From: Armatimonadota bacterium
Lineage (GTDB): Bacteria; Armatimonadota; HRBIN16
Length of the DNA: 64,000 nt
Direction of reading: 5' to 3'
NCBI GenBank assembly: GCA_026003175.1
Contig: BPGT01000001.1
Coordinates: 1,561,597 to 1,625,596 of the forward strand
The position numbers were made by a program, and so were the translations under genes. Under the pieces are notes generated by a model, which saw only the letters and a list, made by a program, of their open reading frames with translations, searched no databases and was not told where the DNA came from. Shown in pieces: positions 5,836 through 64,000 of this stretch; the first letter of the stretch is position 1, and every line of letters starts with the position of its first letter.

Positions 5836-6963
5836 TTACCGGTGGCGGAGCATCTGTTTCAGCTCCGCCACGTTTCCGGCGTGCGCCAAAGCCTCCTCGT
5901 AGGTGATAAGCTGTGCAGCAACTAGTTGCTCCAGTGCCTGGTTCAGCGTGTTCATACCGTAGTGTTCGCCCTCACGCATAGCGGCATACAGGTCGTCGGT
6001 TTTGCCATCTTCAATCAATTTGCGCACTGTTGGCGACCCGACCAAAATTTCCACGGCAGGTAGCCTACCTGCTCCATCCGCACGCAATACCAGACGTTGT
6101 GCTACTGCACAAATTAACGTGTTCGCCAGCTGTACTCGCAAAGGCACACGCTCCTCCGGTGGGAAACTGTTCAGGATGCGTGTGATGGTGGCAGGGGCAG
6201 ACATGGTGTGTAGTGTCGCAATCACCAGATGCCCCAGCTCCGCCGCTGTCAGGGCGACGCGCATGGTTTCCACGTCGCGCATCTCGCCGATGGCAATCAC
6301 ATCTGGATTCTGACGCAGCACGCTGCGCAGAGCTGTAGCAAAAGAGGCGGTGTCTGTGCCCACTTCGCGCTGCAGAATCACGCTCCGCTTGTCCTCGAAA
6401 ACGTACTCTATCGGCTCCTCGATGGTGACGATATTGGCGGTGCGCGTACGGTTAATCTCCTCAATCATCGCCGCCATCGTGGTCGATTTACCACTGCCGG
6501 TTGGCCCGGTGATGAGGATCAGTCCCTGTTGCTGGGAAACGAAATCTTTAAACACCAGCGGCAAGTTGGCTTCCTCGATCGTGGGCGGTTGCAGAGGAAT
6601 GATGCGCAACGCTGCGCTGATACTGCCTCGCTGCAAGAAGAGGTTACAACGCACCCGTGCCATTCCCCCGATGGTGAACACAGTATCAATCTCAGCGTGC
6701 TCTTCCAGCTGTTGCATCTTCTCGTCTACATCCAGAGGTTCCACACTCTCACGGGGATGGGCTGAAGCCAGAAGGGCATCGCGAGCAGCACTGTACAGGA
6801 TGCTATAAGCCAGCTCGTGGCAGTCCAGCGGGGTGAGTGGAGACAGGTCACTGACTACTACTTTCCCATCGATGCGCAGCACCGGAGGGCTACCAGCCTT
6901 GAGAATGACATCTGAAGCACGTCGCGAGATGGCGTATTCCAGTAAATCGTGAATGTTATGCAT
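5836..6963 (-). CDS. pilT: Type IV pilus retraction ATPase PilT
   Basis: This 375-residue hexameric AAA-like ATPase powers pilus retraction for twitching motility. It has the Walker A motif GPTGSGKST, the Asp-box region, the PilT-typical AIGEMRDVETMRVALTAAE, and the His-box LGHLVIATLHT. The N-terminal PAS-like domain begins IHDLLEYAISRRASDVILKAG. There is an insertion of about 40 residues between DALLASAHP and DTVFTIGGMARVR, somewhat longer than usual. No other pilus gene is in the window. It converges with the ANTAR regulator. Confidence 0.93.
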   Translation of the reverse strand: MHNIHDLLEYAISRRASDVILKAGSPPVLRIDGKVVVSDLSPLTPLDCHELAYSILYSAARDALLASAHPRESVEPLDVDEKMQQLEEHAEIDTVFTIGGMARVRCNLFLQRGSISAALRIIPLQPPTIEEANLPLVFKDFVSQQQGLILITGPTGSGKSTTMAAMIEEINRTRTANIVTIEEPIEYVFEDKRSVILQREVGTDTASFATALRSVLRQNPDVIAIGEMRDVETMRVALTAAELGHLVIATLHTMSAPATITRILNSFPPEERVPLRVQLANTLICAVAQRLVLRADGAGRLPAVEILVGSPTVRKLIEDGKTDDLYAAMREGEHYGMNTLNQALEQLVAAQLITYEEALAHAGNVAELKQMLRHR

Positions 6964-7731: not shown

Positions 7732-10000
7732 ATGCAAGAGGTACTAATGATAGCATTGCCCTTGATGCTGGTTATAGCCGCAGCCACTCAGGCACAGCCT
7801 GCGTCAGATACCCCTTTCCTTCAGGAAACCGCCGAGCGCTACTCGCTGGGCTCCCCCGATGCCAATGACGTGCGTTCTGTTGCTGTAGACGCACAGGGCA
7901 GTGCATGGGCGGCGACGCGCGCCGGCGTGTACACTCTAACTAAAGCGCGAAACCGCTGGCAGGCAATGACCTCTCCTGACCATGTGGGGCCCGCTTTCGT
8001 TGTGTTCGCGGATAGCCGGGGGTACCATCTGGGCAGGCGCATGGGATGGATTGTACCGTGCAGCAGGCGATGGTTTGCAGAAGGTATCCGGGATTACGCA
8101 ACCGGTATCCGCTCTATGCGAGGTGGATGGGGAGATAGTGGCTTTTGGTCCCGACGGAATGTGGCGCGTGAAAGGGAACACGGTCATCCCACAAAAGCTA
8201 CCCTGCGCCCGGAGTGTGCGGGCAGTGCTTCCAGATAGCAAGGGTGGCATCTGGATTGGCACCGATGTCGGGTTGTTCCACTACTCATCCGCGGGCACGG
8301 CCTGGCGGTATGACGAAGAATATCTGCTCAGCGCATCGGTGCGCGGGCTGGCGTTCGCGCCGGGTGGCGACCTATGGATTGGCGGACTGGGCGGGATCAC
8401 CATCCATCGTGAAAGCAAACGGGCAGGGCATCTGACGGTCGCCGATGGCTTACCCAGCATGCAGGTGCGGTGTGTGCGTCGCGCCCCCGATGGCAGGATG
8501 TGGATTGGTACACCTGCGGGCGTTGTGCGTACAGATGGCCAGCGATGGTCACTGCTTCACAGCTTGCGCTGGTTGCCGGACGACGACGTGCGCGATGTGG
8601 CTTTTGACGGTGACGGAACAGCGTGGGTGGCTACCGCCGGGGGCGTGAGCGCGATACGCCGGCGTATGATGACCCTCGTTGAGAAAGCAGAACACTACCT
8701 GAGCATCTGCCTGGCTCGGCATGTGCGGGAACCGGGGTTGGTAGAGAAGTGCCTCTTGCAGGTTCCGGGCGACGTGAACACGTGGAGACCGCGCGACGAC
8801 GATAACGACGGCGAGTACACCAGCATGTACCTAGTGATGGAATGCTTCCGATATGCCGTGACAAAAGACCCCGCTGCTCGTGCCAACGCCCGCAAAGCCT
8901 TTGGCGCGCTGCGTTTCCTGCAAACGGTCACTGGCACGCCCGGGTTTGTGGCGCGGACGGTGATTCCCGCGAACTGGGAGCCAATGAACGACCCCAACCG
9001 CGTGTACACCGATGCCGAGTGGGCGGACGAGCACGTCAGCGACCCGCGCCACAAGCGCGTGCATGAGCGGTGGCGATTAAGCAAGGACGGCAGGTGGCTG
9101 TGGAAAGGCGATACCAGCAGCGACGAGATCACCGGGCATTTCTACGGCTATCTGTTCTTTTACGACCTCGTTGCCGACGAACAGGATAAGGCGCAGGTGC
9201 GTGAGCATGTACGCCGCGTGATGGACTATATCATTGAAGGTGGGTATGTATTGCGCGACATCGACAGTATGCACACGCGATGGGGGGTCTGGTCGCCCGA
9301 TAAGCTGAATGCAGACCCCGATTGGGCTCCTGAACGCGGCATCAACTCGTTAGAGATACTTTCTTTCCTCAAAGCGACCTACCATATCACCGGTGATGTG
9401 AAGTACGAGCGTGAATACCGCAAGCTGCTGGACGAACACGGCTATCGTGAGAACGTAAAGCGAGCGAAGACCTTCAACCCGGCATGGCGCACGCACATCG
9501 ACGATGAGCTGCTTGCTCTAGCTTTCCCGGCTTTGCTCCTGTACGAAAACGACCCCGATCTGAAGCGGCTATACCGGCAGGTACTGGACATATGGTACGA
9601 AGGGGTGAAACATGACCAGAACCCCTGGTTCCACTTCCTGTATGCATCGCTCACCGGCTCTTCGCCGGAGATGGAAGACTCGCTGATGTTCCTGCGTGAT
9701 GCACCGCTGGACCTGGTGCGCTGGACGGTGGACAACACCCGACGCGAAGACCTGAAGCTGGTGCGTTCACCGGAGATAGAAAGCTGGCAAACCGACCGTC
9801 TTCCACCGCCCAGCGAGCGAGGTGTGATGCGCTGGGATGACAATCCCTGGCGCGCCGTACAGGGAGATGGTGGGCGTACCGAGAGTGACGGCGTGTTCTG
9901 GTTGTTGCCCTACTGGATGGGCAGATACTATGGCTATATCCAGCCACCTACGCAAAGCAAGCAGGCTGTAACCTGGCAACATGTGGAACAGTCTAATTAG
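7732..10000 (+). pseudogene. Secreted propeller plus alpha/alpha-toroid protein, split by a +1 frameshift
   Basis: One gene of about 755 codons is interrupted by an extra G in the G5 run at 8018-8022. Removing one G joins FADSRG to TIWAGAWDG, and the total length becomes divisible by three. The product has a signal peptide (QEVLMIALPLMLVIAAATQA). A Reg_prop-type beta-propeller follows, with blades such as GGIWIGTDVGLF, DLWIGGLGGITI and RMWIGTPAGVV. From about residue 315 there is a helical region resembling a six-hairpin glycosidase toroid (YLSICLARHVREPGLVEKC, EITGHFYGYLFFYDLV). Start 7732 is preferred over 7702 because it follows GAGAGG and leads directly into the signal peptide. It may be a sequencing error, a true mutation, or recoding. 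The enzyme function is unknown. Confidence 0.7.
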
Positions 10001-35432: not shown

Positions 35433-35619
35433 TGAGGGTGTTCGAGAATTGTTGAGAAGTTGGTTGTAGCGCAAGGAGAGAGGCGTTCTTGCTATCCCTG
35501 CCTTACCTCACCCCCGTCCCCTCTCCTACGAGGAGAGGGGCGTTCCCCCTTCCCTTGCAGGGAAGGGGGCAAGGGGGTTAGGTTATCTATCCATTCAACC
35601 AGCAATTTCGAACACCCTC
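35433..35619. mobile_element. MITE-like element with IS-type ends and 9-bp target duplication
   Basis: The 187-bp segment has inverted ends: left TGAGGGTGTTCGAGAATTG, right (reverse strand) GAGGGTGTTCGAAATTGCTG. It is flanked by the direct repeat GGCGTGCAT (35425-35433 and 35620-35628, sharing one base with the left end). The ends match those of the IS at 50488-51477 (TGAGGGTGTTCGAAAAATCG). It encodes no protein. Its middle carries two G/C hairpins of the same family as the 24721 array. It is best read as a non-autonomous derivative moved by that IS's transposase. It sits between the broken beta-helix gene and lepA, directly next to the lepA promoter. Confidence 0.85.
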
Positions 35620-50418: not shown

Positions 50419-51195
50419 TCACAGAGAATCTCCACGTCTGAGCGAACAAAGCATAGCATTTTCAGCAATATTTGTCAAGTGTTTTATGAGGGTGTTCGAA
50501 AAATCGCATAGACCCCACACCCACCACCAACACACAAAACAACCGCTACCAGCCACCTGCACCACACCCACCATGTTCCACAACACAAACATGCCCCACA
50601 CCCACACCCGTGCAACCACCCACGAACGCGCTCGCCACACACTCCCATAAGCTCCCTTCACACTACCAAACACCTGCTCTATCCGATAACGCTCCCGCAA
50701 CGCCCAACCATATGTCTGCGCACGTGCACGCGCACGCAACCGCGCATCCGCACGCACCTGCTGCCACACGCCATCCCGAACCACTGCCACAGGCAACCAA
50801 CCCGCACGCTCCAGCGCAACCAATAACTGCGCCCGATAACCATACAACCCGTCCCCAACTAATAAAGTGCCACACGACAAACCACCAAGCCCATGACGCT
50901 CCACCCACTCCCACAACAGACGCCCCTCATCCGCATATGCCCCCCCACACGATAACCCCATCACCCACACCCGACCCCCCTGCCAACACCCCAACGCCAC
51001 CACCTTCACATGCGACCGCTGCTGACGTACCTGTGCCCCACGCAAATACTGCGCCAAAAACGGTGAGGCATACCCCACGCCCGTGCCATCCACAAACACA
51101 CACGGCGTTTCACGGGTCGGTGTCTCTGACGCGATGCCCTGCTGGGCAAGCCAAGTGAGCAGTTGGTGCAGGCGTTCGTCTGCAAGATGCTGCAA
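50419..51195 (-). CDS. IS5-like transposase, second reading frame (DDE domain)
   Basis: This frame holds the DDE_Tnp_1 catalytic core: first Asp in CVFVDGTGVGYASPFL, second Asp in TLLVGDGLYGYRAQ, Glu in RYRIEQVFGSVKGAYG. Fusing it with the first frame by skipping one base gives 337 residues, a normal IS5 transposase. There is no stop codon inside the element: the frame reads through the left end and 68 nt of flanking DNA to 50419, adding a tail after FSNTL. Tail length would thus depend on each insertion site. Confidence 0.78.
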   Translation of the reverse strand: MQHLADERLHQLLTWLAQQGIASETPTRETPCVFVDGTGVGYASPFLAQYLRGAQVRQQRSHVKVVALGCWQGGRVWVMGLSCGGAYADEGRLLWEWVERHGLGGLSCGTLLVGDGLYGYRAQLLVALERAGWLPVAVVRDGVWQQVRADARLRARARAQTYGWALRERYRIEQVFGSVKGAYGSVWRARSWVVARVWVWGMFVLWNMVGVVQVAGSGCFVCWWWVWGLCDFSNTLIKHLTNIAENAMLCSLRRGDSL

Positions 51196-51477
51196 CAGGC
51201 AGGGGTTGGTCGGGCAGCAGTTCTGGGGCGAGGGCGAACAGTAGGCGTCGGTAGGAGGCGTTTTCGCGCACTCCCAGCAAGAGGAGGGTGAGGATGAGCG
51301 CTTCGGGGTATTTGTAGGGTCGCCCGCGGCGTGGGGGCAGAGGATGGATTTGGCAGAAGCGTTGGACGATGGTGAAGATGACCTTCACCGACAGGGTAGT
51401 GAGTCTGCTTTGTGGTAGGTATCGTCGTTTCATGGAATCGGTATACCCGATACTAACCGATTTTTTGAACACCCTCA
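50488..51477 (-). mobile_element. IS5-like insertion sequence, about 990 bp
   Basis: The ends are inverted repeats: left TGAGGGTGTTCGAAAAATCG (from 50487), right (reverse) TGAGGGTGTTCAAAAAATCG (from 51477). The direct repeat GTGTTTTAT flanks it at 50479-50487 and 51478-51486 (8 or 9 bp, depending on which T/A is assigned to the element). A 9-bp duplication is known in the IS903 group of the IS5 family; an 8-bp one in the ISH1 group. Two overlapping transposase frames fill it. The intact duplication and ends indicate a recent insertion. The interior is markedly C-rich on the plus strand, unlike its neighbours. Confidence 0.9.
51110..51433 (-). CDS. IS5-like transposase, first reading frame
   Basis: ATG 51433 opens MKRRYLPQSRLTTLSVKVIF. 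The frame covers the N-terminal DUF4096-like region (PPRRGRPYKYPEALILTLLL) and continues to a stop at 51110. After about residue 75 (ELLPDQP) the sensible protein sequence moves to the second frame, one base further along. In this IS family the DDE enzyme is often made by programmed frameshifting between two frames; a C4 run (51202-51205 as plus-strand G) is the likely slip site. Confidence 0.75.
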   Translation of the reverse strand: MKRRYLPQSRLTTLSVKVIFTIVQRFCQIHPLPPRRGRPYKYPEALILTLLLLGVRENASYRRLLFALAPELLPDQPLPVAASCRRTPAPTAHLACPAGHRVRDTDP

Positions 51478-51597
51478 GTGTTTTATCTATCACTCATTGA
51501 GACTACAGCAGGGGAGATCTTCTCTGCTCCATCGCCTACGAGGGTACAGACCCTGTGGTGGCGTAGAATATTACAGCACAAAGGGGAGGCGAGAAAA

Positions 51598-57728: not shown

Positions 57729-57804
<76 letters not shown>

Positions 57805-57905: not shown

Positions 57906-59048
57906 TTAGCCCTCCAGCAACCGCCGAAACAGCGCGTCCATCTTCTGCGCCGCGTCTTGCAAAAGCGTGGGCATCACGTGGGTGTAGAGGTTCGCGGTCA
58001 AACCGACCTGCGAATGACCCAGCACTTGCTGCACCGTGCGAAGGTCGCAACCCATCGCCAGCAGGTAACTGGCTGCCGTGTGCCTCAGCGTGTGGAACGG
58101 ACGCTTCGGCAGTCCTGCCTTCTTCAGCAGGTTATACCAAAGCCGAAGCAGGTTGCGTGCCGGTACGGGCGTGCCCACCGAAGATGCGAACACCAGCCCG
58201 TGTTCACGCCATGATTCGCCCTCCTGCGCCTTCTCCAGCAACTGGTTGGCGCGGTGCTGCTGCAGAACGTCCAGCACGAACTGTGGAATCTGCAGCGTGC
58301 GCCTGCTGCGGGCGGTCTTCGGCTCCACCAGCACCTGCTTGCCGTCAATGGTTTGCAGCTGCACCGCTACCGTGAGCGTGCCTCGTTCAAAATCTACATC
58401 CTGCCACCGCAAACCCAGCAGTTCGCCCTGGCGTAGTCCTGACGCCACCGCCAGCACGAACAGCGCGTATAACCGGTGACCTCGCGCCGTCTCCAGCAGC
58501 CTCTGCACCTCCTCGACCGTGAACGGCTGCACCTCCTCACGCGACACGCGAGGCGCGTCCACCAGCTTCGCCACGTTGCGAGGTACCAGCTGCCACTTCT
58601 CGGCTTGACCGAGCGCGCGGCGCAGCACCGCAAGGATGTACATCACCGTCGCAGGGGAGAGACCGCTCGCAATCTTCTCGTTCAGCAGCTTCTGCACCTG
58701 CAGGGGCGTGAGTTTGGACAGCGCGATGTGTCCCAACGTCGGCACCAGGTGCAGATGCACAATTTCGTGGTAGCGTCGGTAAGTGCGAGGGCGCAGGGTG
58801 GGTCTGGCAGATTCCTCCAACCAGGAAGCCAGAAACTCCCCCACCGTCTGCCTTCCGGTCGTGGGCATGATGCCTCGCTGCAGGTCGGCGAGGGCTTGCA
58901 GAAGCTTCTCCTGCGCTTCCTTGCGTGTGGCACCGTAGAACGCTTTGCGCCTGCGCTTGCCCCCTTCGTAATAGGTGATTCGCGCCTGCCAGCGACCGTC
59001 GGGCAGCTGCGTGATGCTGCCCTCATTGTTGCCTCGTCGTCTCGCCAT
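57906..59048 (-). CDS. Tyrosine-type site-specific integrase
   Basis: This 380-residue protein starts at ATG 59048, which overlaps the previous stop as TGATG. The N-terminal arm-binding domain reads NNEGSITQLPDGRWQARITY. The SAM-like core-binding domain is around 60-165. The catalytic domain has Arg in ASGLRQGELLGLRWQDVD, the H-x-x-R box in FHTLRHTAASYLLAMG, His in VLGHSQVGLTANLYTHV and the Tyr in NLYTHV. All catalytic residues are present. It lies next to tRNA-Lys and marks the left edge of an integrated phage-like element. Confidence 0.94.
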   Translation of the reverse strand: MARRRGNNEGSITQLPDGRWQARITYYEGGKRRRKAFYGATRKEAQEKLLQALADLQRGIMPTTGRQTVGEFLASWLEESARPTLRPRTYRRYHEIVHLHLVPTLGHIALSKLTPLQVQKLLNEKIASGLSPATVMYILAVLRRALGQAEKWQLVPRNVAKLVDAPRVSREEVQPFTVEEVQRLLETARGHRLYALFVLAVASGLRQGELLGLRWQDVDFERGTLTVAVQLQTIDGKQVLVEPKTARSRRTLQIPQFVLDVLQQHRANQLLEKAQEGESWREHGLVFASSVGTPVPARNLLRLWYNLLKKAGLPKRPFHTLRHTAASYLLAMGCDLRTVQQVLGHSQVGLTANLYTHVMPTLLQDAAQKMDALFRRLLEG

Positions 59049-59236
59049 CAACGCACCTCCGCTCGCAGCATCTCCCACGCCTCATCCAGTTCCTGTCGGT
59101 TCAGTTGCAATCGCCACTGGTGGGCAGCAAGCAAGTGTTGGTACGCAAAGAAGAGGGCATCTTCCATCTCTTCCTCAGGGTGGGTGCGCACGTAATCCAG
59201 CATGACCTCAACGGCTTCGCGAACACGTTCGTTCAT
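59048..59236 (-). CDS. Small acidic protein coupled to the integrase
   Basis: A 62-residue helical, Glu-rich protein (RVREAVEVMLDYVRTHPEEE, LNRQELDEAWEMLRAEVR) follows GGAGGAGG. Its stop overlaps the integrase start by one base, so they are cotranscribed and coupled. Excisionase-like basic HTH features are absent. The function is unknown; it might be an integrase accessory factor. Confidence 0.65.
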   Translation of the reverse strand: MNERVREAVEVMLDYVRTHPEEEMEDALFFAYQHLLAAHQWRLQLNRQELDEAWEMLRAEVR

Positions 59237-59385
59237 CGTTCCTCCTCCTTTGCGGGTCTCTTGAGGCGTTCACAGCAAGGGGGCTTGACGCAGGCTTGCA
59301 GAGGATGCTACACTGTTCCTGCGTTCACAGCTCCCGCCTGTGGACGCCACGACGGCGGTAGTTCCGGCTACGCGCCGTCATTTTC

Positions 59386-59414
59386 ATCTTAGCATTCTCT
59401 ACAAAACGTGTCAA
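59386..59414 (-). promoter_or_regulatory. Promoter of the small-protein/integrase operon
   Basis: On the minus strand TTGACA (59414-59409), exact 17-bp spacer, TAAGAT (59391-59386). It leads into a 143-nt leader with several stems, for example GACGGCG/CGCCGTC (59378 to 59350 region), before ATG 59236. Confidence 0.7.
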
Positions 59415-59425
59415 GCGACCAGTTA

Positions 59426-59692
59426 GATTGCAAAAATTGCGTCAGGTCACAAATTTTTGTAACCTGATGCAACAATTGCGAGACAGTTCTGATTGGCCTG
59501 GATTGCAAAAGTTGCATCAGGTCGGCGAAATCGCCGACCTCATGCCACAATCGCAAGACAATTGGATTGCAAAAATTGCATCAGGTCGCAAAAATTTGCG
59601 ACCTCATGCTACAATTGCAAGACAATTGGATTGCAAAACTTGCATCAGGTCAGCGATTTCGCTGACCTGATGCAACAATCGCAAGACAGCAT
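59426..59692. repeat. Four-unit array of covarying hairpin repeats
   Basis: Units start with GATTGCAAAA at 59426, 59501, 59565 and 59629 (spacing 75, 64, 64 bp). Each has an outer arm TTGCATCAGGTC and a return arm GACCT(G/C)ATGC, and an inner stem that differs but stays paired: ACAAA/TTTGT, GGCGA/TCGCC, GCAAA/TTTGC, AGCGA/TCGCT around a 2-nt AA or TT loop. The array ends 24 bp before the amidase stop and begins 12 bp from the integrase promoter's -35 box. The surrounding 59237-59715 gap has no gene. It could be a regulator-binding array, a replication or recombination site, or a structured RNA. Confidence 0.92.
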
Positions 59693-59715
59693 CGGTGCGG
59701 ATGGCAAGCAGTTTT

Positions 59716-60486
59716 TTATTCCTCAAGGGGTTCCAGTTTCAAGGCGCGAAGGCGGGTGTCCCACACAACGTGCCGGTGCAGCGATGACAGCACCTGACGC
59801 AAGGGTACGCAAACCAACGCCGTGCCGTAAATGATGTGCGTCTCCATCGGCAACTCTGGGAGGCAGCCAAGCTGCCTGGTTAGATGCGTTCTGGGAACCC
59901 ACAGGTCGCCTCCGTCCTGCCTCGCCAGCAGCTTCGTGTCGCCCACGAACACATTGACGTAGGCGGGCGGTTCTTCGCACTCTGGCAGCGGTGCGCTGCC
60001 GATGGCTTGCCTCAAGCGGTCGCCCCACCCCACAAGGTCGTCCGTGTCGGGTTCCAGTTCGCCGTGCGTCTGCACGTCGCGAACATCCAGCTGGTAGCGC
60101 GAACACAACAGCCGACACAGCGACACCAGACTGTTCCATTGCCGTTCGTTAGGGGACTTGCCCACCAGCAGCACGCCTGCACTGCCGATGTTGAAAGCGT
60201 GCGTGTGCCTCGCGTAGCCCTGTCCTCGTTGCGGTGAGGCGTTGTCTGCTAACGAGAACACCCCGCGTGCTACTGCGCCACCCTTCGCGATGAGAAAATG
60301 GTAGCACGGCAGCAGGTCGTCAAGGGGTTCGCACACGGGCGCGCTGTGCACCACCACACGGCGAAGGCTGCATACAGGGAACCAGTCTGGTGGTAAAGAG
60401 AAAAAATCCCCCCACGATGACGCTCGACCTTCGTCATCGGAGGGGTCAGGCGAACAACCCACAGTTCGGCAGCTAGCTTTGAACAC
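59716..60486 (-). CDS. N-acetylmuramoyl-L-alanine amidase-like protein (endolysin candidate)
   Basis: This protein of about 256 residues has an amidase_2/PGRP fold from about residue 43: VVVHSAPVCEPLDDLLPCYH, FLIAKGGAVARGVFSL, HTHAFNIGSAGVLLVGK, and THGELEPDTDD. The H...H...H/D pattern suits a Zn amidase that cleaves between MurNAc and the peptide, as phage lysins do. The C-terminal 100 residues (VNVFVGDTKLLARQDGGDLW) look like a small beta domain. The start is uncertain: GTG 60486 overlaps the upstream gene, but a terminator at 60401-60445 interrupts, so a GTG at 60357 is possible. Confidence 0.7.
   Translation of the reverse strand: MFKASCRTVGCSPDPSDDEGRASSWGDFFSLPPDWFPVCSLRRVVVHSAPVCEPLDDLLPCYHFLIAKGGAVARGVFSLADNASPQRGQGYARHTHAFNIGSAGVLLVGKSPNERQWNSLVSLCRLLCSRYQLDVRDVQTHGELEPDTDDLVGWGDRLRQAIGSAPLPECEEPPAYVNVFVGDTKLLARQDGGDLWVPRTHLTRQLGCLPELPMETHIIYGTALVCVPLRQVLSSLHRHVVWDTRLRALKLEPLEE
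60401..60445 (-). terminator. Rho-independent terminator, minus strand
   Basis: Stem CGATGACG (60415-60422) / CGTCATCG (60432-60439) with outer CCCC (60410-60413) / GGGG (60442-60445), and six A on the plus strand (60401-60406), which is a T6 tail on the minus strand. It would end the unit running from 61574 through 60473, and lies within the first codons of the amidase reading frame. Confidence 0.75.
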
Positions 60487-60826
60487 GTTTGATTGCTTCT
60501 TCCAGCGCATCCAGCATCTCACGACTGGCGTCGTGTTCCACGCGAACGTTGTCGCGGTACTTCTCTGGGCGTCGTGCCTTCAGCAGGAACATCAGCAACG
60601 TGTCGCTGCCGGCAAGTGCGCGGCGCACGGCTTCGTCCTCCAGCGCGTCTGTGCCCTGTTCCCAAGCGTCCTCCCACTGCTGGGCGAAGGTATTGCTGCG
60701 CTGCCTGCACCGGTAGGCGTGCTGTCTGGAAACGCCTGCCAGCCTGGCTGCCTGGCTGACGCTGCAACCACGCGCGAGGGCAGCCAGAAACTTCTCACGC
60801 CAATCGCGCCCTTTTTTAAGTGTCAC
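60473..60826 (-). CDS. HTH protein, terminase-small-subunit-like
   Basis: This 117-residue protein has an N-terminal HTH (FLAALARGCSVSQAARLAGV, SRQHAYRCRQR). It also has the stretch FLLKARRPEKYRDNVRVEHD, which is typical of phage terminase small subunits and related helix-turn-helix_Tnp-like DNA-recognition proteins. It would recognise the packaging site of a phage. No large terminase gene is in the window, so the call is tentative. It ends just before the terminator at 60401-60445. Confidence 0.7.
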   Translation of the reverse strand: MTLKKGRDWREKFLAALARGCSVSQAARLAGVSRQHAYRCRQRSNTFAQQWEDAWEQGTDALEDEAVRRALAGSDTLLMFLLKARRPEKYRDNVRVEHDASREMLDALEEAIKRVQS

Positions 60827-61637: not shown

Positions 61638-61940
61638 TTACCGCCTCAAAGTTTCTTCTATCTCCTCCCAGTCCGTCGGACGCCACAGGTAGACCTCAAC
61701 CTGCGGACACGCGCCTAACTGGGCAAGCCAGTGCTGTTGTGCTGGCGTCGGCTTGCGCACGCCCGTCTTCAGTTCCGCGAACAACACTCTCGGCGGGCGC
61801 ACCAGCACTAAGTCCGGGAAGCCTTCGGGCGAACGCTGACTGTTCCACGTATGGTAACACAGCCAACCTTGCAACTCTGCCAGCTCTCGCACCGACTGCA
61901 GGAACTCCTTCTCGCGTACGGGCAGGGATAGTCTTCCCAT
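61638..61940 (-). CDS. VRR-NUC domain nuclease
   Basis: This 100-residue protein starts at ATG 61940 after GGAGGCGAATTTG. It is a minimal VRR-NUC (PD-(D/E)xK) nuclease: FLQSVRELAELQGWLCYHTW, SPEGFPDLVLVRPPRVLF, AELKTGVRKPTPAQQHWL, giving D...E-L-K. Stand-alone VRR-NUC proteins are common in phages and resolve or cut branched DNA during replication or packaging. It lies between the ssDNA-binding-like gene and the promoter at 61595. Confidence 0.88.
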   Translation of the reverse strand: MGRLSLPVREKEFLQSVRELAELQGWLCYHTWNSQRSPEGFPDLVLVRPPRVLFAELKTGVRKPTPAQQHWLAQLGACPQVEVYLWRPTDWEEIEETLRR

Positions 61941-62055
61941 CAAATTCGCCTCCTGGTTCGGTCTGCCATAGCCGTCAAATTTGCGTTTTAAGGCGTCTAC
62001 AAGCCTCGTACAGCCACGAAATCGGCAGGGGTAGGCTTCCACACACCGTGCTTAG

Positions 62056-62096: not shown

Positions 62097-63014
62097 TTAC
62101 GCCTCGTAGTAGTCGGCTTCAGAATCTGCTGGCACGGCTACCTTCGCCCGTGCAGGCTTGCGCAGTGGTAACAGGTCTTCCACGCAATTGAACAGGTTGC
62201 CGTCCTCACCACGCCTGACTACCACCACAGCAATCGCCTTGCGTCCCTTGAGGTTTTCGGTGTCCAGCTCCTCGCCCGGCTCCGGCTCAAAGCCAAAAGC
62301 TTTAGCCCACCGTGCCAGTTTGCTGTTGGTGCTGCTGCTGGTGTTCGTCCACGCGGTCAACTCCCTGCCTTCGTGTTCGGGGTCAAGCACACGCAGTCTC
62401 CACACCAACTGCACGCCATACTTGCCCTCTTGCTCGCTGACGCTTTCCACCTTCACGGGGTACTCGCCGGTAGGCAGCGGTTCTGTTGTTCTCCAACGGA
62501 TTCGCATGTTTGCCTCCTCATGTTGTGGTTTGTAAACGCTTGTGTGTCGTTCATCCTGCTGTGCATGATAGGGAAGCCGGCGGTAGGCTGCGACGAGTAG
62601 ACGTTCATCGTGCGCAGGTGAAGTGCAGAAGGCAGTCCACGCCTCGCGCCCTGCTGGAATGCGCACGTGAGGCAGGATGCGCAGTTCAGGAAAGCCATAC
62701 GCCTCAGCTGCATGCAAGAGCAGTTCCGGCAGTGGAGTAAAACTGTCCAGAGGCTCGCTTAATACGCGCCTGCAGTCCGTGCAGACGTAACGCTGTAGTT
62801 CCACGTCAAAGCGCACGTTGCTGCCCTCGCACCGCCAGCAGACGTATTCCTGCCGAACGAGTTTGCAGAGGTCTTCACGCAAGCGCGTGACGTGCTGCTG
62901 CAGTTCGTTGGTAAGCAAATGTCGCTGCGGTGCGAACATGCGCAGTTTGCCGTCTTCCACCCACAGCGCAACGCCCATCGCCCGAAGGATGTCCAGCAGT
63001 TCAATCGCAGTCAT
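62097..63014 (-). CDS. Composite protein: docking/zinc-ribbon part plus DUF669-like ssDNA-binding part
   Basis: One 305-codon frame. Residues 1-168 hold a TubC-N-like docking segment (AIELLDILRAMGVALWVEDG), a zinc ribbon (CWRC...CTDC) and an unknown segment. Residues 170-305 (from MRIRWRTTEPLPTGEYPVKV) resemble DUF669-type phage single-strand-binding proteins (WAKAFGFEPEPGEELDTENL, KGRKAIAVVVVRRGEDGN). An ATG at 62507 is preceded by GAGGAGGCAAAC, an ideal ribosome site, so the second part could also be made alone. The start at 63014 overlaps the upstream stop by 14 nt. It fits a replication/recombination module. Confidence 0.72.
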   Translation of the reverse strand: MTAIELLDILRAMGVALWVEDGKLRMFAPQRHLLTNELQQHVTRLREDLCKLVRQEYVCWRCEGSNVRFDVELQRYVCTDCRRVLSEPLDSFTPLPELLLHAAEAYGFPELRILPHVRIPAGREAWTAFCTSPAHDERLLVAAYRRLPYHAQQDERHTSVYKPQHEEANMRIRWRTTEPLPTGEYPVKVESVSEQEGKYGVQLVWRLRVLDPEHEGRELTAWTNTSSSTNSKLARWAKAFGFEPEPGEELDTENLKGRKAIAVVVVRRGEDGNLFNCVEDLLPLRKPARAKVAVPADSEADYYEA

Positions 63015-64000
63015 TTGCAACATCCCACTCCAGCAGCAAGGGGGCATCTTCTGACGAACTGACGAACTGACGAGTATTATATATGTCCGTCACTTCGTCA
63101 GTTCGCTGACCCCACACCTTAGCGCGTCCGCGCTTGCCCTTCTCCGCAACCAAGCCTGCCCTGTGCAGGGCGCGGAGGTGGTCGCTGATTGTGGTGCGGG
63201 GCAGTCCTGTGAGCTCTTCCAGTTCTTCCACCGTCCGGTCAGCCTCGCGCAAAGCCATGAGGATTTCGCCTCGAACTCCTAGCGCTTCGGCTTCGTGGGT
63301 TGCACTTTGCACCTGCTCAAATCGCACTAACCGCAGGTTGCCTTCCACGTCGTTCGTGAAGGTCATGACGAGGTGCAGGTCAGGATGCAGTGCACCGAAG
63401 GTGCTCTTCTTGTGCCGAATCACGATGCCCACACGCGAAACTGCCGAAGTGACTGTGTCGTTAGCCTTCGCGCTTGTCACCGATTCGCCAATGCGTTCAA
63501 TCTGCAAACGCGACCGCGCATAGTGGGCCTTATAAGCCGTGCCATATTCGCTCTTGTTTGCGTAGGTGTCCTCGGCTTGCAGTTTGCCCTGGTGGTCAAT
63601 CACCAGCACCGCACAAGGCAGTTGCTCCAGCAGGTTGTATGCCTGTATTGCCTTCTCAGGGTCACGAGGGTCAGTCCCCAACGCCTTGCCCAGACTGTCT
63701 ACCACCACCACTGCCGGTGAGTGCTCGTGTGCGAGGCTTTGAATGTAGGGGAAGACAGCAGTCAGGGGTTTGGTCATGCGCTCATACAGCAATCCTCTCA
63801 AGGCATCCTCAAAGCCAGCACCGCGACATACGGCATACCATCTTCGCGCTGTGGTTTCCGCGTCCAACTCCCAGTCTAAGTAGAGCACTTTGCCTGCCTT
63901 CACGCGCTTGCCACAGAAGGGCTCGCCAGTAAGGCAACACAGCGCAAGGTGTAGAATGAGAAAGCTCTTCCCCTGTCCACTGTCGGCGAACAAATTCGTG
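63001..64000 (-). CDS. RepA-like AAA ATPase with C-terminal winged helix, 5' truncated
   Basis: The gene enters from beyond the right edge: the visible frame is open to the last base, with TNLFADSGQGKSFLILHL (Walker A GQGKS). KVLYLDWELDAETTARRW and VVVVDSLGKALGTDPRD (Walker B) follow, with IDHQGK as sensor. This matches AAA_25/RepA-type hexameric helicases of phages and plasmids. Residues from about 240 (EILMALREADRTVEELEELT, GLPRTTISDHLRALHRAGLV) form a MarR-like winged helix. It is the likely replicative ATPase of the element. It lacks a start inside the window. Confidence 0.85.
   Translation of the reverse strand, partial: TNLFADSGQGKSFLILHLALCCLTGEPFCGKRVKAGKVLYLDWELDAETTARRWYAVCRGAGFEDALRGLLYERMTKPLTAVFPYIQSLAHEHSPAVVVVDSLGKALGTDPRDPEKAIQAYNLLEQLPCAVLVIDHQGKLQAEDTYANKSEYGTAYKAHYARSRLQIERIGESVTSAKANDTVTSAVSRVGIVIRHKKSTFGALHPDLHLVMTFTNDVEGNLRLVRFEQVQSATHEAEALGVRGEILMALREADRTVEELEELTGLPRTTISDHLRALHRAGLVAEKGKRGRAKVWGQRTDEVTDIYNTRQFVSSSEDAPLLLEWDVANDCD

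What the first reader, a model, noticed from the sequence alone, without database searches (positions are those of the whole stretch)
59426..59692. Hairpin array with unit-specific but self-complementary inner stems
Four units share arms TTGCATCAGGTC / GACCT(G/C)ATGC, but their inner stems are all different and all still paired (ACAAA/TTTGT, GGCGA/TCGCC, GCAAA/TTTGC, AGCGA/TCGCT). Several independent double changes keep pairing, so the fold (as DNA cruciform or RNA) or a two-fold protein contact seems to be selected. The array lies 12 bp from the -35 box of an integrase operon in a mobile element. It is not a CRISPR: the units are palindromic and the varying part is symmetric.
Basis: partly seen in the sequence, partly recalled or inferred. 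Interest (0 to 1): 0.8.

Follow-up and report, generated by a model that had tools for sequence, protein, structure and literature searches.

The report
ParB-gene palindromes arrayed in phage satellite
A small phage-like parasite in this bacterium carries a row of four DNA palindromes that are copies of a palindrome phages hide inside the gene of a DNA-binding ParB-type protein, so the row is probably a landing strip for such a protein, a link I found no description of.

Summary
The array is real: four ~55-bp palindromic units (59427-59684) with paired, unit-specific inner stems. In 14 homologous units (12 distinct), six base pairs change on both sides and no inner-stem cell is G-U. It sits in an 8.4-kb tRNA-integrated phage-satellite-like element (integrase, excisionase, primase-helicase, TerS, endolysin) and is found only in that element family (1-4 units; two relatives lack it).

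A covariance model led further. One more unit lies in frame inside a phage gene for a ParB-HTH-methyltransferase fusion. Even the array's flank still spells that protein (QDS.GADGK). Homologous ParB-HTH genes of unrelated phages and plasmids carry a palindrome at the same codons: 23 of 31 distinct genes beat synonymous shuffles at p<0.01, and arms covary (143/150 pairs, 0 of 20,000 shuffles as good). Extra copies occur upstream of parA (Leptospira plasmid), in a parA-family gene, and as intergenic arrays whose inner stems also differ from unit to unit.

Best reading: a cluster of parS/operator-like sites for a ParB-type phage protein, placed 12 bp from the int/leader promoter. Binding is inferred, not shown. 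Template-switch mutation may account for part or all of the covariation. CRISPR is excluded; replication origin, integrase arm site and plain terminator are unlikely.

The parts
59427..59481 (+). palindromic unit 1 (inner ACAAA-TT-TTTGT)
   Evidence: ortholog of c4_1 and g4b_1
59502..59556 (+). palindromic unit 2 (inner GGCGA-AA-TCGCC)
59566..59620 (+). palindromic unit 3 (inner GCAAA-AA-TTTGC)
59630..59684 (+). palindromic unit 4 (inner AGCGA-TT-TCGCT)
59685..59709 (+). flank GACAGCATCGGTGCGGATGGCAAGC; with unit 4 it still reads LQNLHQVSDFADLMQQSQDSIGADGK, matching the ParB-HTH-methyltransferase segment LQLSHQVINFDNLKQSLQDSSTGADGK of phage contig G004:C8
59386..59414 (-). sigma-70-like promoter TTGACA-17-TAAGAT facing away from the array towards the structured leader and integrase
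59285..59314 (+). convergent promoter-like site TTGACG-18-TACACT
59322..59392 (+). candidate small structured RNA (two hairpins, then ATTTT), region kept in related elements
   Evidence: z -4.25
57906..59078 (-). tyrosine integrase (PF00589, PF14659)
59048..59236 (-). 62-aa ORF upstream of the integrase, no family
59716..60522 (-). endolysin-like N-acetylmuramoyl amidase (PF01510, weak), next gene to the array
60473..60826 (-). terminase small subunit-like protein (phrog_4044)
61638..62042 (-). VRR_NUC-like nuclease (phrog_93; Pfam match below cut-off)
62097..63047 (-). DUF669 / single-strand-binding-like protein
63001..64000 (-). 3' part of the primase-helicase gene (complete in L117:5241-7316)
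57760..57804 (+). 45-bp attachment repeat at the 3' end of tRNA-Lys (57729-57804); second copy at the far end of the element in G000:C2

Best explanation
The array is a cluster of two-fold symmetric target sites (parS/operator-like) for a ParB-HTH-type phage protein, carried by a phage-satellite-like element that has no ParB gene of its own. SHOWN: the unit is homologous to a palindrome lying in frame, just after the helix-turn-helix, in a ParB-HTH-methyltransferase gene of a phage in a sister species. The same position in homologous genes of unrelated phages and plasmids is palindromic, with covarying arms. Further copies sit outside the gene on the same replicons, one just upstream of parA. 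INFERRED: the ParB-type protein binds the palindrome; its gene carries its own site; the satellite has multiplied the site next to its int/leader promoter so that a helper-phage ParB-methyltransferase loads there and represses or switches that promoter, or serves or titrates the helper, when the helper is present. Paired inner-stem change is kept by need for two-fold symmetry and probably helped by template-switch correction.
For: CM R1 (built from 14 array units) hits G004:C8:23610-23664 at 60 bits, E 1.1e-11. It lies in frame in a 441-aa ORF with ParB_N, HTH and N6_N4_Mtase domains on a terminase-bearing phage contig. The homology includes the outer TTGCAA arms and the QDS.GADGK flank. ParB-HTH homologs have a palindrome at the same codons: 23 of 31 distinct genes p<0.01 against synonymous shuffles. 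In 25 distinct coding palindromes 143 of 150 cells at pairs 5-10 are Watson-Crick (shuffled mean 94; 0 of 20,000), and pairing fades beyond pair 11. In the Leptospira plasmid the palindrome is in parB and again ~90 bp upstream of parA. In the Agrobacterium phage-plasmid an exact 15-bp core lies in a parA-family gene. An IMG/VR-wide scan for CTGGGGAAWTTCCCCAG gave 39 sites, more than half inside ParB-HTH genes, and some contigs with genic plus extragenic copies share the same outer arms. In 24 such records the looser pattern is present in 23 and its reversed control in none. Intergenic arrays with differing self-complementary inner stems occur in other phages (L292, L298, L316, L283). Array arms in orthologous units are ~96% identical where fourfold sites are 79% (window vs G004:C1:825). 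Established: ParB/KorB proteins load on palindromic sites and KorB silences promoters from them (PMC11790492); ParB-N6N4 methyltransferase fusions are common in phages, function unknown (PMC12704722).
Against: No binding data. The only ParB-methyltransferase relative found with this version of the unit is in a sister genome; none was found in the window's own assembly. Two related elements lack the array, so it is not essential. A sequence-reading dimer would not need the variable inner bases to be complementary to each other. The extragenic copies were found partly by searching for the sequence, so the ParB link there is ascertained, not independent. The match of outer arms between genic and extragenic copies rests on about four replicons. 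In none of the phage cases was ParB's DNA preference tested.
Confidence: 0.5

Rival explanations
1. Template-switch (quasipalindrome) mutation alone makes the paired changes; no fold or symmetry is selected beyond the arms.
For: The centre is always AA or TT and flips within the same stem type (GGCGA-AA/TT-TCGCC, GCAAA-AA/TT-TTTGC), as spacer inversion does; inner pairs change on both sides with no one-sided or G-U intermediates. w4 and c4_4 have identical arms but a clustered inner change. PMC8604942 and PMC8794818 document arm homogenisation, spacer inversion and multibase compensatory change by this route.
Against: C-C and interior-loop mismatches in the arms persist uncorrected across elements. 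It does not explain why the palindrome recurs at the same codons of divergent ParB genes with amino-acid changes, nor the extragenic copies and the parA-upstream copy.
Confidence: 0.3
2. Tandem intrinsic terminators/insulator between the endolysin operon and the int/leader promoter.
For: Strong hairpins right after the amidase stop; on the minus strand each unit is followed by TTTT(T)GC; one unit passes the terminator scan.
Against: Only one of four units passes the scan and the region holds fewer terminator-like sites than shuffles. The base between stem and T-run varies (A/G/C). The homologous unit in the phage gene has no T-run and is read through as codons. A relative without the array has the promoter directly after the stop codon. 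Flanks beyond the T-run are conserved.
Confidence: 0.12
3. Packaging (pac/cos-like) or replication-origin signal of the satellite.
For: TerS gene two genes away; always in the TerS-amidase module.
Against: Better origin candidates exist: iteron-like inverted repeats in the primase gene of L117 and near it in L145 and L146. Array-less elements keep TerS. In annotated phages the genic palindrome lies kilobases from terS/terL.
Confidence: 0.08
4. A RPE/MITE-like mobile palindrome that inserts in genes and intergenic regions.
For: Found both inside ORFs and between genes; unit numbers vary 1-4.
Against: In ParB genes always at one codon position; no scatter in the own genome, only in these elements; arms differ between replicons.
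Confidence: 0.07

Closest known systems
ParABS centromeres/operators (parS; KorB OB sites)
   Same: Short palindromes in clusters, in or near parA-parB type genes, one upstream of parA; beside promoters
   Different: Inner bases vary from unit to unit yet stay self-complementary; a copy is embedded in the coding region right after the HTH; here carried by an element without parA/parB; binding unproven
Phage-inducible chromosomal islands / phage satellites
   Same: 8.4 kb, integrase at a tRNA, excisionase, primase-helicase, TerS, no capsid genes seen
   Different: No helper shown; carries an endolysin-like gene and this palindrome array
ParB-CTPase-fold N6/N4 methyltransferase fusions of phages (PMC12704722)
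   Same: The gene that carries the homologous palindrome is of this kind
   Different: The survey text held here does not use the word palindrome
CRISPR arrays
   Same: Regular repeat spacing
   Different: Units palindromic, no spacers, no cas genes seen; varying part symmetric

Membership tests
ParABS parS/operator | palindromic site, several copies | tested here: met
ParABS parS/operator | cognate ParB-type gene on the same replicon | tested here: not met
   none seen among the element's called ORFs in L117; present on phage G004:C8 in a sister genome. For the phage/plasmid palindromes: met
ParABS parS/operator | bound specifically by the ParB protein | not testable with these tools
   needs EMSA/footprinting
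phage satellite (PICI-like) | integrase, att in tRNA, own replication gene, TerS, no capsid genes | tested here: met
phage satellite (PICI-like) | induction and packaging by a helper | not testable with these tools
   no experiment; candidate helper type only (G004:C8)
CRISPR | near-identical repeats with non-repeated spacers and cas genes | tested here: not met
   units palindromic, no spacers; cas not seen among neighbouring genes scanned
intrinsic terminator | GC-rich hairpin followed at once by a T-run | tested here: inconclusive
   one of four units passes; T-run interrupted and not in the phage homolog
known Rfam family | score above gathering cut-off | tested here: not met
   only sub-threshold matches, mostly long-stem miRNA models

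The most novel reading that the evidence does not exclude
ParB-HTH(-methyltransferase) phage proteins recognise an extruded hairpin or a symmetry-defined site rather than one fixed sequence. Their genes carry that site as a coding palindrome just behind the recognition helix, and phages and satellites scatter and array such sites, with freely varying but self-complementary cores, as control or hijack platforms: a ParB-linked regulatory system not yet described.
Probability: 0.25. Interest if true: 0.88.

Novelty: new variant of a known kind. Interest (0 to 1): 0.72.

Why it matters
It links an unexplained repeat in a satellite to a widespread, functionally unassigned class of phage proteins (ParB-fold methyltransferase fusions) and predicts their DNA targets from sequence alone. 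It also gives a clean test case for separating selection on symmetry from template-switch mutation, because in the phage genes the paired changes also change amino acids.

Tried and rejected
CRISPR (no spacers). Integrase arm sites: better candidates are TGATGCCAATT direct repeats near both ends of L117. Replication origin: iteron-like repeats in the primase gene. Coding repeat: unit spacing 64 is not a multiple of three. Known RNA family. No DNA relatives of the array in the phage collection, only two short weak Leptospira matches in plasmids, and no exact match in viral contigs; one viral-contig pattern match (L147) shows no hairpin on inspection. G047 hit (E 7.5e-4) is a dnaB-like coding stretch, judged chance. 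Strand preference from G-U pairs: mixed, so RNA vs DNA undecided. I had recalled B. subtilis parS inside spo0J as a parallel; the papers read here did not confirm it, so it is not used. Integrase relatives in genome contigs gave only distant integrases and were not pursued.

Full report
OBSERVATION. The four units are at 59427-59481, 59502-59556, 59566-59620 and 59630-59684. They fold with z of -8.3 to -9.7 against dinucleotide shuffles.

SETTING. The array lies between the stop codon of an endolysin-like gene (59716, minus strand) and a promoter (-35 at 59414, minus strand) that leads, through a structured leader, to a 62-aa ORF and a tyrosine integrase. The window ends inside the element because its contig ends there. 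A nearly identical copy (99.7% over ~6 kb) on contig C2 gives the whole of it: 8.39 kb, bounded by a 45-bp repeat of the tRNA-Lys 3' end, with excisionase, primase-helicase, DUF669, VRR_NUC-like nuclease, TerS-like, endolysin and integrase, and no capsid genes. It resembles a phage satellite.

DISTRIBUTION. In the own genome the unit occurs only in four element copies: three nearly identical ends on C1, C2 and C5, and one diverged on C4. A sister species, G004, has three elements with 3, 3 and 1 units. Units are orthologous by position, so the array is older than the divergence of the elements. Between the window and G004:C1:825 the arms of orthologous units are 124/129 identical while fourfold sites of neighbouring genes are 79%. 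Two relatives with 61-62% identical amidase have no array.

COVARIATION. In 12 distinct units six pairs have changes on both sides; 20 double-changed cells against 7.6 in shuffles, and sliding the structure destroys the signal. Four inner-stem pairs change only as Watson-Crick to Watson-Crick; the other two double-changed pairs are in the arms. One-sided, G-U-compatible changes occur only in the arms and favour neither strand. The centre is always AA or TT (AATT in one) and flips within a stem type. Template switching is known to cause exactly such arm homogenisation and spacer inversion (PMC8604942) and multibase compensatory changes (PMC8794818), so covariation alone does not prove selection on a fold.

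WHAT THE UNIT IS. A covariance model of the array finds one more unit, in G004:C8, a 34.6-kb contig with a terminase large subunit. There the hairpin is in frame in a 441-aa protein with ParB_N, HTH and N6/N4-methyltransferase domains...SERLQLSHQVINFDNLKQSLQDSSTGADGKRYP... The last window unit and its flank read LQNLHQVSDFADLMQQSQDSIGADGKQ on the plus strand, so the homology extends through the outer arms and ~25 bp of flank.

A GENERAL FEATURE OF PARB-HTH GENES. Homologs in Agrobacterium and Mesorhizobium phages, an Agrobacterium phage-plasmid, Leptospira plasmids and many viral contigs carry a palindrome at the same place, between recognition helix and GxDGK motif: GTAACTGGGGAAATTCCCCAGTTAC, TCAACTGGGGAAATTCCCCAGTTGA, TGGTGGGGAAATTCCCCACCA, CAACTGCGGAAATTCCGCAGTTG, AGGTGAGGAAATTCCTCACCT, TGGTGGTCAAATTGACCACCA and others. 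Against synonymous codon shuffles 23 of 31 distinct genes have p<0.01 (300 shuffles each, floor 0.0033). Across 25 distinct 27-mers, pairs 5-10 are Watson-Crick in 143 of 150 cells (shuffled mean 94.5, 0 of 20,000 as high), with several pair types per position, and pairing drops beyond pair 11. This shuffle test keeps column make-up, not relatedness, and the 25 were chosen for having palindromes, so it measures covariation, not prevalence.

EXTRAGENIC COPIES. The Leptospira plasmid has a second copy, TTTACCAACTGGGGAAATTCCCCAGTTGGTAAA, ~90 bp upstream of parA, whose operon holds the palindrome-bearing parB. The Agrobacterium phage-plasmid has an exact 15-bp core inside a parA-family gene. A scan of all IMG/VR contigs for CTGGGGAAWTTCCCCAG gives 39 sites, more than half inside ParB-HTH genes. 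Contigs with both kinds share outer arms (L309 CATC/GATG in both; L312; L317 with L243). Of 24 records searched with CTNNGGAANTTCCNNAG (one mismatch), 23 match, several with 2-5 copies, and the reversed control never matches. L292, L298, L316 and L283 have intergenic arrays of such palindromes with different self-complementary cores, the same architecture as the window array; at least L298 places it between genes that look by eye like portal and head protease (not scanned).

MECHANISM. ParB-family proteins load on palindromic parS/operator sites, and KorB silences promoters from them as a CTP-dependent clamp (PMC11790492). ParB-fold fusions to N6/N4 methyltransferases are common in phages without known function (PMC12704722). 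I therefore infer that the palindrome is the target of the ParB-HTH protein, that its gene carries its own site, and that the satellite keeps 1-4 extra copies by its int/leader promoter so that a helper-phage protein acts there. The binding step and its effect are not shown. Why inner bases should stay complementary is the open point: symmetric contact plus template-switch correction, or recognition of a hairpin.

LIMITS.

Noticed in passing
window 59285-59414: Convergent promoter-like sites flank a region that folds into two hairpins and ends in ATTTT (candidate small RNA/antisense pair); promoter, leader and hairpin pattern recur in related elements L119-L122 and L145.
   Followed up: partly
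L117:5295-5345 (about window 63055-63105); L145:7416-7510; L146:3866-3983: Iteron-like inverted repeats in or near the primase-helicase gene, candidate satellite replication origins; repeat sequence differs per element.
   Followed up: partly
L117:126-148 and 8223-8244: Direct repeats TGATGCCAATT x2 near both element ends, likely integrase arm sites.
   Followed up: partly
window 50487-51478 and 35433-35619: Stretches of ~990 and ~190 bp present at 99-100% identity beside the C4 element and near the C5 element; probably other mobile or repeated DNA.
   Followed up: no
L312:1586-1731: Five tandem identical palindromes TTATGTCCGGGACATAA every 31-33 bp just upstream of a ParB-HTH gene: another array, with constant core.
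   Followed up: no
G121 (contig of L302), positions 6218, 6461, 16800, 21279, 31228: Five dispersed copies of CTGGGGAANTTCCCCAG in one 34-kb viral contig, with varying centre base.
   Followed up: no
L119 (G000:C4:147085-147889): The amidase gene of the C4 element is broken into frames with internal stops while its array is kept.
   Followed up: no
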